A DNA stretch of 52,245 bases from Candidatus Methylomirabilota bacterium (GTDB lineage: Bacteria > Methylomirabilota > Methylomirabilia > Rokubacteriales > CSP1-6): the NCBI GenBank assembly GCA_035709005.1, contig DASTFB010000075.1, positions 1-52,245 on the forward strand. The letters run 5' to 3'. The translations under genes and the position numbers were made by a program. Shown here one piece after another: positions 46,475 to 52,160 of this stretch. A model generated the notes under the pieces. The model worked only from the letters and a program-made list of their open reading frames with translations. It made no database searches and was not told the origin of the DNA. Numbering within the stretch: the stretch's first letter is position 1; every line of letters begins with the position of its first letter.

Positions 46475-46535
46475 GTCTAACCTTCAGGCTGAGCGGGCCG
46501 GCGTCGAGCCGGACCGCTCCAGCCTGGTGTTAAAC
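46475..46535 (-). other. attC: attC site (61 bp), distal-most of the array
   Basis: Minus strand: R'' box GTTTAAC and R' box GTTAGAC fit RYYYAAC and GTTRRRY. Plus-strand arms CAGGCTGAGCGG and CCGCTCCAGCCTG pair with one extra (extrahelical) base. It begins 6 bp after the antitoxin stop. Confidence 0.82.
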
Positions 46536-46541
46536 CGCCTG

Positions 46542-46787
46542 TTAGGACCGCAGATCCTCCAGTCGGACACCGCGTCCACTCCGGAGCCCCTCGCGCGCCT
46601 CTCCTATGCGCCGCAAGAACTCGGGATGGTGCTCCAGTCGGTAGTCGAGCCAGTCGTCCTCGCTTTCGAAGCCAATCAAGACGCCAGCCGGTTTCCCATG
46701 CCGCGTGATGAGGATTTCTTCGGACTCCGCTAGGCGCAGGAATCGCGACAGATCGTCCTTGACTTCAGCCAGGGCCGCTTGGCGCAC
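46542..46787 (-). CDS. Phd/YefM-family antitoxin
   Basis: An 81-residue antitoxin. The N-terminus (RQAALAEVKDDLSRFLRLAE) and EEILITRHGKPAGVLIGFES are the Phd/YefM DNA-binding fold; the C-terminal part (EFLRRIGEAREGLRSGRGV) is the flexible toxin-neutralising tail. GTG 46785-46787 is used as the start, placing it inside the last 23 bp of the toxin gene. Its TAA is 6 bp from the attC. It would bind the toxin and repress the promoter at 47086-47113. The order is toxin first, which is the less common arrangement for this family. Confidence 0.85.
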   Translation of the reverse strand: MRQAALAEVKDDLSRFLRLAESEEILITRHGKPAGVLIGFESEDDWLDYRLEHHPEFLRRIGEAREGLRSGRGVRLEDLRS

Positions 46788-47076
46788 TGGGCGTCCCCTG
46801 CTCGGCGAGCCAGCGCGCCGCTTCGGCTTTCGTGACGATCGCGAGGACCTCGACAGCCTCCCGCGTGACGTCATAAGACACCCTCACTTCCCCAACCCGA
46901 AGACGATACCGCGGTTGACTCAAGCCACGAAGGCGCTTGATCCGGCTCTTGCTTACTCGGGTTGGCTGGTCCCGCAAGTGCCGTTCGAGGGCGTCCCGGA
47001 CTTCGGCCCGATGGTAAGCCTTGAGAGACCTGAAGGCCTTCGCCGCCTCAGGCGCCAAGACGACCTCGTGCCGCAT
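46765..47076 (-). CDS. RelE/ParE-family toxin
   Basis: A 103-residue toxin of the RelE/ParE superfamily, probably an mRNA interferase or gyrase inhibitor. The pattern is RHEVVLAPEAAKAFRSLKAYHRAEV, then IKRLRGLSQPRYRLRVGEVRVSYDV, with the basic RLRVGEVRV strand typical of RelE. The C-terminal tail (EQGTPSAPSGPG) is encoded over the antitoxin start. A TTGACC-N16-TATATT promoter directly upstream means this cassette need not rely on the integron promoter. Such pairs are known to stabilise cassette arrays. Confidence 0.88.
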   Translation of the reverse strand: MRHEVVLAPEAAKAFRSLKAYHRAEVRDALERHLRDQPTRVSKSRIKRLRGLSQPRYRLRVGEVRVSYDVTREAVEVLAIVTKAEAARWLAEQGTPSAPSGPG

Positions 47077-47804: not shown

Positions 47805-47865
47805 GTCTAACGCCCGGCTTCAACGGCGGCGGCGAAGCCGCTGTCCGCTGTAGCCATTGTTGAGC
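47805..47865 (-). other. attC: attC site (61 bp)
   Basis: Minus strand: R'' GCTCAAC, R' GTTAGAC, both perfect fits. Arms GGCTACAGCGG and CCGTTGAAGCC pair with two mismatches, around a GC-rich central hairpin (GCGGCTTCGCCGC). Lies 45 bp after the arginase-family stop. Confidence 0.85.
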
Positions 47866-48878: not shown

Positions 48879-48938
48879 GCCCAACGTTCAGCATCAGCCG
48901 CGGCGCAGAGCGCCGTCGGCTCCATGCTGTTGTTGGGC
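48879..48938 (-). other. attC: attC site (60 bp), best example
   Basis: GCCCAAC and GTTGGGC end boxes are perfect inverse repeats and fit both consensus boxes. Plus-strand arms CAGCATCAGCCG and CGGCTCCATGCTG pair with one extra base, then a GC-rich loop. Lies 40 bp after the SDR stop. Confidence 0.88.
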
Positions 48939-48978: not shown

Positions 48979-49926
48979 CTAGCGATAGTCGCTCGGGTTG
49001 ACGTTCTGATCGCCGGCCTCGACTACCTCGCTATATCGCCATACGTTCGGACGTGAACCGTCAATGTCCGTAAAGCCGTACTCATCCGCCAGTTGCGCTG
49101 ACGTCACGGACTGCTGATTCCATCGCTCACGCCTGGGATCACTTGCGAGCGCTACTACAGCGCGCCCCACGTAGCGGGGCGACTCTGACACCGCGAATCC
49201 GGGCGGAGCAGCAGCGGTGCGCCAATTACCCTCAGTAACTTTGTAGTTCTCCAGCATCATCTCCGAGCGAAGCCATCCAGGTGTGATCGCCACTGCCGTC
49301 GCGTGGTGCGGCGCGAGTTCATGTCCCTCCGAGAACGCCAGGCGATTCACGGCGACCTTTGCCAGGTCGTAGAACACGGAGATCCGGTACCGCGACGCGT
49401 TGTAGTCCCACGCTCCATCGGTTACCTCGACGAGCAGGCCTCCAGGGCGGTCAGTCAAAAGGGGCAGGAGGTAGTGTGAGGTTATTAAGTGGGTATCGAT
49501 GGCGAGGCGAAGAATCCGGAGACCCTTGGGAAGATCATGCTGCCAGATGGGTTTGTTCCAGTCGGGTGGGCCACCCTTGAGCCGTTCTGCACCCCAGATG
49601 TCGTTCACCAAGATGTCGATGCGATCGTGCGTATCGCGGATCTGGTCAGCCAACCGCCCGACCTGGTTGGCGTCGAGATGGTCGACCACGAACGGAATAC
49701 CCTGACCGCCCAACGACGTCACGAGTTCAGCGGTTTCCTCGATCGTCTCGGGACGAGCGTAGTCGGACTGCAGTGAGCGATCGCGACTGCTGCGACCGGT
49801 ACAAATGACCGTGGCGCCGGCCTCCCCCAGAGCCGCCGCGATACCACGGCCAGCCCCTCGCGTCGCGCCAGCGACGATCGCGATGCGACCACGCAACGCG
49901 TTCGGATCGGGACACCAGTTCGTCAC
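48979..49926 (-). CDS. Short-chain dehydrogenase/reductase, DHRS1-like (cassette gene)
   Basis: A 315-residue SDR, longer than classical ones. Cofactor motif IVAGATRGAGRGIAAALGEAG, an Arg-rich second loop (CTGRSSRDRS) suggesting NADP, and LVNDIWGAERLKG in place of NNAG. The catalytic Tyr-Lys appears as YDLAKVAVNRLAF. The extra insert after SDR strand 3 and the NWNKPIW/ITPGWLRSEMML pattern resemble DHRS1-type proteins. Substrate unknown. It is a one-gene cassette, with its attC at 48879 and a truncated attC 54 bp before its start. Confidence 0.85.
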   Translation of the reverse strand: MTNWCPDPNALRGRIAIVAGATRGAGRGIAAALGEAGATVICTGRSSRDRSLQSDYARPETIEETAELVTSLGGQGIPFVVDHLDANQVGRLADQIRDTHDRIDILVNDIWGAERLKGGPPDWNKPIWQHDLPKGLRILRLAIDTHLITSHYLLPLLTDRPGGLLVEVTDGAWDYNASRYRISVFYDLAKVAVNRLAFSEGHELAPHHATAVAITPGWLRSEMMLENYKVTEGNWRTAAAPPGFAVSESPRYVGRAVVALASDPRRERWNQQSVTSAQLADEYGFTDIDGSRPNVWRYSEVVEAGDQNVNPSDYR

Positions 49927-49979: not shown

Positions 49980-50026
49980 GCCCAACGCTCTGGATCAGGC
50001 GCGGCCGAAGGCCGTCGCCTGCATCC
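49980..50026 (-). other. attC: Truncated attC site at the IS110 junction
   Basis: GCCCAAC box, arm GGATCAGGCG, loop and complementary arm CGCCTGCATCC (with the extra base) match the left three quarters of the other attC sites. Then the sequence departs at 50027 into GGATGACTCTCATCC, a 6-3-6 palindrome. The second end box is missing; an IS110-family element starts here. Confidence 0.65.
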
Positions 50027-50909
50027 GGATGACTCTCATCCAGGCCTCCTCCTCACCACCCGACGGGGTACGGTGAGTGCGGCCAAGCAAAAACCCTCCC
50101 GCAGCGGGAGGGAGGAAGAGACAAGGATGAGGTTCTACACCACGTCGCACCGATACTACTGCGGGATCGACCTGCACGCGAGACGGATGTACATCTGCGT
50201 GCTGGACGGGGACGGCCAGATCCGCGTGCATCGCAACGGCCCCGCCACCCCCGAGCGCTTCCTCACCACGATCGCGCCGTACCGTGAGGACCTCGTGGTG
50301 GCGGTCGAATGCATCTTCAAGTGGTACTGGCTGGCCGATCTCTGCGCCCACGAGGGCCTCGCCTTTGTCCTCGGCCACGCCCTGTGCATGAAGGCCATCC
50401 ATGGCAGCAAGGCCAAGAACGACAAGATCGACGCCCATAAGATCGCCGTGCTCCTGCGCGGCGGCATGCTGCCCATGGCCTACGTGTATCCGCGGGAGAT
50501 GCGCGCCACCCGCGACCTCCTGCGCCGGCGCTGTCACTTCACCCGCAAGCGCGCCAAGCTCGAACTGCACCTGGCCCAGACGGCCAAGGTCCACGACGTG
50601 AACGCCTTCTACCGGCTCCGCTCGGTGCCGGGGATCGGCAAGATCCTGGCCCTGGTGCTGCTCTACGAGATCCACGACATCCGCCGCTTCCCGCGAGTGC
50701 AGGATTTCGTGTCGTACTGCCGGCTGGTGAAATGCGCCAAGCAGTCCGACGGCAAGCACTACGGGTACGTTGCGGACACGAAGATCGGCAACGCCCATCT
50801 GAAGTGGGCGTTCTCCGAGGCGGCCGTGCTCTCGTTGCGGAAGAACCCCGTCGCGCATCGAGGAGCACGGGAGAGCCGGCCGTCTAACTGGACCCCTGAG
50901 GGGGACTGA
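50027..50909 (+). mobile_element. Degenerate IS110-family element next to an attC
   Basis: From the attC break at 50027 the sequence holds a 100-bp leader with two palindromes (GGATGA-ctc-TCATCC at 50027; CCCTCCCGC-a-GCGGGAGGG at 50094) and then a damaged transposase. IS110 relatives of the IS1111-attC type are known to insert in attC sites. The right end cannot be placed; the coding part stops resembling a transposase near 50860. The leader may be a remnant of the bridge-RNA region, but it is short for one. Confidence 0.6.
50127..50909 (+). pseudogene. IS110-family DEDD transposase, internally deleted and 3'-truncated
   Basis: The N-terminal RuvC-like domain is intact and keeps the DEDD pattern: Asp in YCGIDLHARRMY, Glu in VVAVECIFKWYW, two Asp in KNDKIDAHKIA. 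The C-terminal Tnp_20 part has SVPGIGKILALVLLYEIHDI, FVSYCRLVKCAKQSDGKHYG and IGNAHLKWAFSEAA. Relatives have about 60-70 more residues where LELHLAQ joins TAKVHDVN, so that segment is deleted, and roughly 100 residues are lost after LSLRKNP; the end (SRPSNWTPEGD) is unrelated. It is probably inactive. GGGAGGGAGGAAG precedes ATG 50127. Confidence 0.8.
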
Positions 50910-50942
50910 GCCCGACGCAGCTGATGCTCGGCCTCGTTATGC
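50882..50942 (-). other. attC: Possible decayed attC at the IS right edge
   Basis: A 61-bp segment bounded on the minus strand by GCATAAC and GTTAGAC, the latter a perfect R' box. The arms are atypical: GAGGCCGA / TCGGGCTC pair only in the left half. It may be a fused half-site from the nitroreductase cassette. Confidence 0.3.
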
Positions 50943-51428
50943 GGCGTCGACCGCGCGCGAGCATCTGGGGGCGACGTCCCGGAGTCCCGTGCGTTGATTG
51001 GACTCCCGTGCTCGCTCGACACGCTGAATCGCACTAGGTCGGCCTCCGATGGCGCTGGGGGCTGCCCCTCTCCCGAGCTGCGTGCTAACTGGGACTGGCG
51101 GTCGGTTGGCCAGAGCCGTCGCGTTGAGTCAGCCGGCACGAGGGCACAGCTGGGTTTCTAGGCCGCGGAGACGTTGCTGCTCTCCGCGCTGGGGGCGAGG
51201 ACTGCATCATCGCCTCGGCTCGAGGCTCGATAAGTGTTTGGTGCAGACCACGCGGCCTGACGCCGCCGTCGAAATGATGTCAGCCACATCACGGGGCCGA
51301 TCGTCGTGCCTTCCTCAGCGGACGCCATCGTCCGCGACGGAAGCTCTTTGCCTCTTGACAACCGGAGGCCTGATAAGTGTTCGGCGGACGATCGCAGCAG
51401 AGTGACGACGCCTGCGCCGGGGCAGCCA
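50910..51428. other. 519-bp stretch between the IS remnant and the nitroreductase
   Basis: No convincing gene. It holds a 13-bp near-identical repeat, GATAAGTGTTTGG at 51229 and GATAAGTGTTCGG at 51372, each next to GTTYGG-type text that could be leftover attC ends. A GCCTCG-gct-CGAGGC palindrome lies at about 51211-51225. The stretch is probably IS or cassette debris. Confidence 0.4.
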
Positions 51429-52070
51429 TCACGCGCGCTGACCCCACGTGTCCCAAGACGTTCGCTCCCTTGCGGACACTCGCTTCGCTGGGTGCAGTGC
51501 TGCTCCTGCAAGGTACGCGACCGGCAAGAGAGCCACCTGCGTGATGTCGTCGGGGATGCCGAGCAGGGCCGCGGCCTCACGCGCGTACTTGAGGTGGGAC
51601 GTTGTCCATGCCGAGCCAAGGCCACGAGATCGGAGGGCGAGCATGAGTGACCACGTGGCCGGAAGAATTGACCCGTAGAAGGTTGGCGGTCCGCAGTCCG
51701 GCCCGAGCGCGGCGAAACCGTCGCGCCCCGCGATACAGGGAATTACATGGACGGGTACCTCGTGGAGATGGTCGGCAAGGTGCATCACCGACGACATGAA
51801 CGCCGGTGTCGTCTGTCGAACCTGCTCGACGCGACGCGGGGGATAGATTTCCGCCAAGCCGCGACGGTAAAGCTTCGCAAGTTCACCACGCTTTGTCGCG
51901 TCCGTGACAACCACGAAATGATAGCGGGCCGTGTCGCCTCCGGTAGGCGCCTGCACAGCAAGTTCCAGACAATGTTGAATCACGCTACGCTCGACCGGCC
52001 GAGCGAGGTCCAGGCGCCTCCGAACCGAGCGGGTCGTCGTGAGGAGCTCATCGACTACGGTGAGATCCAT
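51429..52070 (-). CDS. Nitroreductase-family FMN protein (cassette gene)
   Basis: A 213-residue nitroreductase. Start LTVVDELLTTTRSVRRRLDLARPV with the FMN-binding RSVRR, QAPTGGDTARYHFVVVTDA, then the C-terminal GLGSAWTTSHLKYAREAAALLGIPDDITQVALLPVAYLAG, all standard for FMN-dependent nitroreductases. It reduces nitro compounds, quinones or flavins with NAD(P)H. It lies inside the cassette array with an attC 31 bp before its start. Its own attC is not clear; the IS110 remnant lies downstream. Confidence 0.87.
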   Translation of the reverse strand: MDLTVVDELLTTTRSVRRRLDLARPVERSVIQHCLELAVQAPTGGDTARYHFVVVTDATKRGELAKLYRRGLAEIYPPRRVEQVRQTTPAFMSSVMHLADHLHEVPVHVIPCIAGRDGFAALGPDCGPPTFYGSILPATWSLMLALRSRGLGSAWTTSHLKYAREAAALLGIPDDITQVALLPVAYLAGAALHPAKRVSARERTSWDTWGQRA

Positions 52071-52100: not shown

Positions 52101-52160
52101 GCCGAACGTTCAGGCTGAGCCGCCGGCGTCAAGCCGGCCGGCTCGAGCCTGTTGTTCGGC
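52101..52160 (-). other. attC: attC site (60 bp), right-most
   Basis: End boxes GCCGAAC and GTTCGGC are perfect inverse repeats, though the fourth base departs from the strict consensus. Arms CAGGCTGAGCCG and CGGCTCGAGCCTG pair with one extra base, around a CCGGC-rich loop. It belongs to a cassette whose gene lies beyond the window edge. Confidence 0.8.

What the first reader, a model, noticed from the sequence alone, without database searches (positions are those of the whole stretch)
49980..50942. IS110 remnant starts exactly where an attC is interrupted
The attC at 49980 follows the others for 47 bp and then breaks at 50027. A short leader and a damaged IS110-family transposase follow. IS1111-attC type elements are known to target attC sites. 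The transposase has an internal deletion and a lost C-terminus, and a possible second half-site lies at 50882-50942.
Basis: partly seen in the sequence, partly recalled or inferred. Interest (0 to 1): 0.58.

Follow-up and report, generated by a model that had tools for sequence, protein, structure and literature searches.

The report
Broken jumping gene inside integron attC
A decayed, probably RNA-guided insertion sequence sits at a precise spot inside a gene-cassette recombination site, and its relatives in bacteria of many phyla sit at the same spot, so it belongs to a family specialised on integrons that is only distantly related to the attC-targeting element known from clinical plasmids.

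Summary
The other half of the attC is TGTTCGGC at 51378-51385; the proposed half-site at 50882-50942 lies inside the element. Joining the flanks at one TG gives a 58-nt site, the length of three uninterrupted attCs in relatives (48-49 of 58 identical). Against an intact relative, two deletions (174 bp in frame, 382 bp) break the transposase. Of 80 relatives, 52 could be tested at the right end: 47 have NGTT exactly there (1.6% expected). The 3' non-coding region holds a structured RNA with compensatory changes, and one segment covaries with the left flank just outside the core, as a bridge RNA/seekRNA guide should. ISPa21, an attC-targeting IS1111-group element, is only about 20-25% identical in transposase and inserts several bases away, so this looks like a separate attC-targeting lineage. 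The window's copy is a fossil whose guide fits its site poorly. New variant of a known kind.

The parts
49980..50031 (.). Left part of the interrupted attC: one R box (GCCCAAC, 49980-49986), the hairpin arms, and the core TG (50030-50031)
   Evidence: aligns to uninterrupted attCs in genomes of the same family
50032..51377 (+). The IS110-family element, 1,346 bp, with two internal deletions
50041..50049 (+). Left subterminal inverted repeat CAGGCCTCC
51364..51372 (-). Right subterminal inverted repeat (GGAGGCCTG on +)
50127..50909 (+). Transposase remnant; homology to the intact protein ends at about 50861; lacks 58 internal codons and the C-terminus
50986..51300 (+). Conserved structured RNA region in the 3' non-coding part (candidate bridge RNA/seekRNA), with segment A at 50994, CTAACTGG at about 51085 and segment C at 51226
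51378..51385 (.). Right part of the interrupted attC: TG core and TTCGGC (R box GTTCGGC, 51379-51385)
51429..52070 (-). Nitroreductase-family gene, the cassette whose attC is interrupted (inferred from gene direction)
48979..49926 (-). Short-chain dehydrogenase gene, next cassette in the array
48879..48938 (.). Intact neighbouring attC
52101..52160 (.). Intact neighbouring attC

Best explanation
A dead copy of an RNA-guided IS110-family insertion sequence, from a lineage specialised on integron attC sites. Proposed mechanism: the 3' non-coding region is transcribed as a bridge RNA/seekRNA; segment A reads the few bases left of the core, segment C contains the element's own right end plus the core, and the DEDD transposase recombines a circular form with attC at the TG of (T)GTT, between the first G and TT of an R box. 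Shown here: the ends, attC sequence on both sides, empty sites of equal length, conserved RNA structure, and covariation of RNA and flank. Inferred: that the RNA is made and guides, the circular intermediate, and the orientation that puts the insertion in the R'' box of the nitroreductase cassette with the transposase opposite to the cassette gene. This copy later lost 174 and 382 bp and can no longer move by itself. The split attC probably cannot pair its R boxes, so the cassette is probably locked in place (not tested).
For: Ends and flanks. Uninterrupted attCs of equal length. 47 of 52 testable relatives have NGTT at the right end; 54 of 57 have [TG]GA[TC] at the left junction; left flanks fold stably (z below -2) in 25 of 54 loci against 10 of 134 controls. 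RNA: 93.9% of cells paired, covariation score 0.431 against 0.163 in shuffles, 0 of 500 as high. Guide: positions -4, -3, -2 match in 27, 29, 34 of 48 loci against 17.0, 12.8, 14.7 in shuffles. Integrase in the genome.
Against: In the window itself the left guide matches its site at only 4 of 10 positions, core included. No right-target guide could be shown. Loci are related, so matches are not independent. L038 and L051 are relatives without the attC-type ends. 5 of 52 right flanks lack NGTT, and about half of the left flanks show no clear hairpin by the z-score used. Nothing was tested at the bench.
Confidence: 0.82

Rival explanations
1. The element is simply a member of the published IS1111-attC group (ISPa21, ISKpn4, ISPst6, ISPa25).
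For: Same target type, same end of attC, transposase opposite to the cassette gene, 3' NCR with RNA, subterminal inverted repeats.
Against: ISPa21's transposase is about 20-25% identical (42 of 75 clade proteins even reach E 1, best 3e-6), its right end leaves AATT before GTT, and three clade RNA motifs are absent from its 3' region. In a quick tree it groups with IS4321, outside the other 73 rows, on long branches.
Confidence: 0.2
2. The transposase fragment is the gene of an ordinary cassette lying between two attCs.
For: An R-box-like GTCTAAC and GTTATGC flank 50889-50940 by eye.
Against: That stretch belongs to the 3' NCR of the intact element and aligns to it at 84%; the scan finds no attC there; the IS ends lie elsewhere.
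Confidence: 0.03
3. The deleted copy is a non-autonomous element that an intact transposase elsewhere still moves.
For: Both subterminal repeats, both TG cores and the main RNA segments are present.
Against: No other copy of the NCR and no close intact transposase in the same genome; the genome is about 95% complete and fragmented, so one may be missed.
Confidence: 0.12

Closest known systems
ISPa21 and the published attC-targeting IS1111-group elements (ISKpn4, ISPst6, ISPa25; PMC11187229, passages and section 9 read)
   Same: Insert at one end of attC; transposase opposite to the cassette gene; longer NCR downstream of tnp; subterminal inverted repeats; RNA from the NCR (shown in print for ISKpn4 and ISPst6, predicted for ISPa25)
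   Different: Compared directly with ISPa21 only: transposase about 20-25% identical; ISPa21 leaves AATT before GTT where this clade leaves one base; no shared RNA motifs
IS110-family bridge RNA elements (IS621 and others, PMC11208160, passages read)
   Same: DEDD plus Transposase_20 domains; non-coding RNA with segments that match target and element ends
   Different: RNA lies in the right end, as in IS1111; core TG here; no cell or test-tube proof
IS4321 (IS110-like element annotated on NZ_CP041734)
   Same: IS110-like transposase
   Different: Very distant transposase; its published target is the terminal repeats of Tn21-family transposons (title in the reference list)

Membership tests
IS110/IS1111 superfamily | DEDD N-terminal and Transposase_20 C-terminal domains | tested here: met
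   Pfam PF01548 and PF02371 above cut-off
IS110/IS1111 superfamily, IS1111 type | Longer NCR downstream of tnp | tested here: met
   Left end about 95 bp before the ATG, RNA-bearing NCR after tnp in window, L011 and relatives
IS110/IS1111 superfamily, IS1111 type | Subterminal inverted repeats (7-17 bp in PMC11208160; usually 11-13 in PMC11187229) | tested here: met
   9 bp in the window, 7-15 in relatives; short by the stricter range
IS110/IS1111 superfamily, IS1111 type | Terminal extensions of 7 and 3 bp beyond the repeats | tested here: inconclusive
   9 and 5 bp between the 9-bp repeats and TG; depends on where the repeat is taken to end
Published IS1111-attC group | Insertion into attC at a fixed point and orientation | tested here: met
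   for attC; but the fixed point differs from ISPa21
Published IS1111-attC group | Transposase related to known members | tested here: not met
   ISPa21 about 20-25% identical; outside the clade in the quick tree; other members not available
Bridge RNA/seekRNA element | Structured NCR RNA with a segment matching the target | tested here: met
   left side only; right-target guide inconclusive
Bridge RNA/seekRNA element | RNA made, bound by the transposase and needed for insertion | not testable with these tools
   needs bench work
Integron attC | Two R boxes around an imperfect hairpin, homologues in arrays, integrase in the genome | tested here: met
   the integrase lies on another contig, so linkage to this array is not shown

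The most novel reading that the evidence does not exclude
A lineage of bridge-RNA-guided IS110-family elements, found in records assigned to about a dozen phyla and separate from the published IS1111-attC group, is specialised on integron attC sites and cuts inside the R box itself, at the position equivalent to the integrase crossover (G|TT). It would be a second, convergent invention of attC targeting, in which a short variable guide follows the attC type of each host's integron.
Probability: 0.6. Interest if true: 0.62.

Novelty: new variant of a known kind. Interest (0 to 1): 0.45.

Why it matters
attC sites share structure more than sequence, so how an RNA-guided transposase keeps finding them is an open and testable question. 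Dozens of natural element-target pairs with a variable guide give a ready data set for guide rules of IS1111-type bridge RNAs. Insertions that split attC should freeze cassettes, so the lineage may shape cassette arrays in many environmental bacteria. The window's own copy is only a fossil witness.

Tried and rejected
Second half-site at 50882-50942: rejected, it lies in the IS 3' NCR. Break at 50027: corrected to 50031/50032. Rfam: no hit in the window at gathering thresholds. Viral contigs: no relative. Empty Grimontia site by pattern: none found. Right-target guide covariation: none convincing; the first test of the CTAACTGG segment used a register off by one and is not used. Link of the integrase contig C41 to this array: no attC found in its first 12 kb, left open. 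The careful tree was not finished; the quick tree is cited. Further copies of attC in the window by a looser scan below 44,000 look like chance and were not used.

Dropped rows: of 80 relatives, 23 failed the end criteria (short contigs, decayed or divergent ends), leaving 57; 5 more had under 8 nt of right flank, leaving 52 for the NGTT test. The hairpin test used 54 loci including the window. The guide test used 48 loci including the window. The RNA structure used 24 sequences that I chose.

Full report
What is there. The contig ends in a gene-cassette array with genes on the - strand. Intact attC-like sites were found at 46475-46535, 47805-47865, 48879-48938 and 52101-52160. Between a short-chain dehydrogenase gene (48979-49926) and a nitroreductase gene (51429-52070) a further attC is split. 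The genome holds an integron integrase on another contig (C41:366-1310, over the curated cut-off).

Ends of the element. DNA blocks 50028-50561, 50557-50861 and 50852-51386 align at 90, 88 and 84% to an intact relative in L011, titled Candidatus Rokubacteria. Left and right ends line up across relatives. In the window the IS is 50032-51377 with TG on both sides, at 50030-50031 and 51378-51379. Joining the flanks at one TG gives 58 nt. Three uninterrupted attCs from genomes of the same family (L118, L119, L120) are also 58 nt and 49, 48 and 48 of 58 identical; a fourth, L117, is 60 nt.

Decay. Against L011 the window lacks 174 bp in frame and 382 bp; the second deletion takes the C-terminus and the start of the 3' NCR. 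The aligned blocks overlap by 5 and 10 bp at the two points, which may be short homologies. No second copy of the NCR was found in the genome, and only distant IS110 transposases.

Relatives target attC. A scan of one genome per species gave 80 loci (295 encode a relative, the best 80 are kept). 57 have recognisable ends and 52 of these could be tested on the right: 47 have NGTT at the end, against 1.56% of flank positions; 16 have strict GTTRRRY, against 0.08%. Of the five that fail, L069 has TGTGTGTT and L075 a repeated right end. At the left junction 54 of 57 show [TG]GA[TC], 2 do not and 1 lacks flank. Left flanks fold more stably than shuffles (z below -2) in 25 of 54 loci, against 10 of 134 control stretches. 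The records fall into 12 phylum-level groups; many are metagenome bins and may hold foreign contigs. In the host family 3 of 57 genomes, the window's included, have a close transposase.

RNA. The 3' NCR is conserved in blocks. An alignment of 24 chosen sequences gives nested stems with compensatory changes: 93.9% of cells paired against 80.0% in shuffles, covariation score 0.431 against 0.163 (0 of 500 as high), and 0.03-0.11 when slid. Segment A (TTGATT) matches the left flank locus by locus: at -4, -3 and -2 before the core 27, 29 and 34 of 48 loci match, against 17.0, 12.8 and 14.7 in shuffles (1, 0 and 0 of 2000 as high). L026, L045, L050 and L058 match over the last 7 positions, core included. 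Segment C repeats the variable base of the right end: 51 of 57 equal and 6 A against G; L050 carries ACAAC in both places. Shuffles do not remove kinship, so counts are not independent events. No right-target guide could be shown. In the window the left guide fits at 4 of 10 positions, against 8 of 10 for L011: a weak site, or later drift.

What it works like, and what it is. Siddiquee 2024 (PMC11187229; [quoted passage not shown] Durrant 2024 (PMC11208160; passages read) places bridge RNAs in the right end of IS1111 elements. The window element appears to work like these. As a test of kinship I read the ISPa21 region of a class 1 integron on NZ_CP041734. The name ISPa21 comes from PMC6739498 (passages); the record says IS110 family transposase. 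PMC11616780 (passages) calls ISPa21 an IS1111-group element and that group attC-targeting. Its transposase is about 20-25% identical to this clade; AATTGTTAGC follows its right end, where AATT is attC by the recalled canonical sequence; three clade RNA motifs are absent from its 3' region. In a quick tree it groups with IS4321, outside the other 73 rows, on very long branches. Of the founding papers, Tetu and Holmes 2008 is not held and Post and Hall 2009 was not looked up; both are known here only from reference lists and citing passages. Searches listed no paper that I could recognise as describing this lineage; most subscription papers are outside that library. A survey of Shewanella integrons found IS110 elements but none interrupting attC (PMC9229058, passages).

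Orientation. Because the cassette genes run on the - strand, the box next to the nitroreductase stop is taken as R'' and the IS splits it; the transposase is opposite to the cassette gene, as ISPa21 is to smr. G|TT is the same relative position at which integrases cut the R' box (recalled, from no call). That the cassette is locked is inference.

Verdict. New variant of a known kind, interest 0.45.

Noticed in passing
window 46542-47076 (-): A Phd/YefM-type antitoxin gene (Pfam) overlaps a small downstream ORF (46765-47076) that looks like its toxin partner; both lie within the cassette array next to the attC at 46475-46535.
   Followed up: no
G000:C41:366-1310 (-), L099: The integron integrase lies at a contig edge, and the array in the window runs off the other contig's end just after the attC at 52101-52160. 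If the two ends join, integrase and cassettes would point the same way, an unusual layout.
   Followed up: partly
L075 right end: The right end of this relative is repeated head to tail (GACGGGAATAAGGCTCATATG) before the GTTAGG box.
   Followed up: no
L052, L053, L054, L057 (Grimontia hollisae contigs): Near-identical transposase copies at ends of different contigs or in different attC-like sites of one genome, suggesting recent activity and good material for an experiment.
   Followed up: no
L055, L058, L065, L071 (Geobacter-type records): A sub-clade whose left junction reads GGAT in place of TGAT; in L058 and L071 the RNA segment A reads GGAT too, in L055 and L065 it does not.
   Followed up: partly
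L038 and L051: Transposases about half identical to the window's but without the attC-type ends: possible relatives with other targets.
   Followed up: partly
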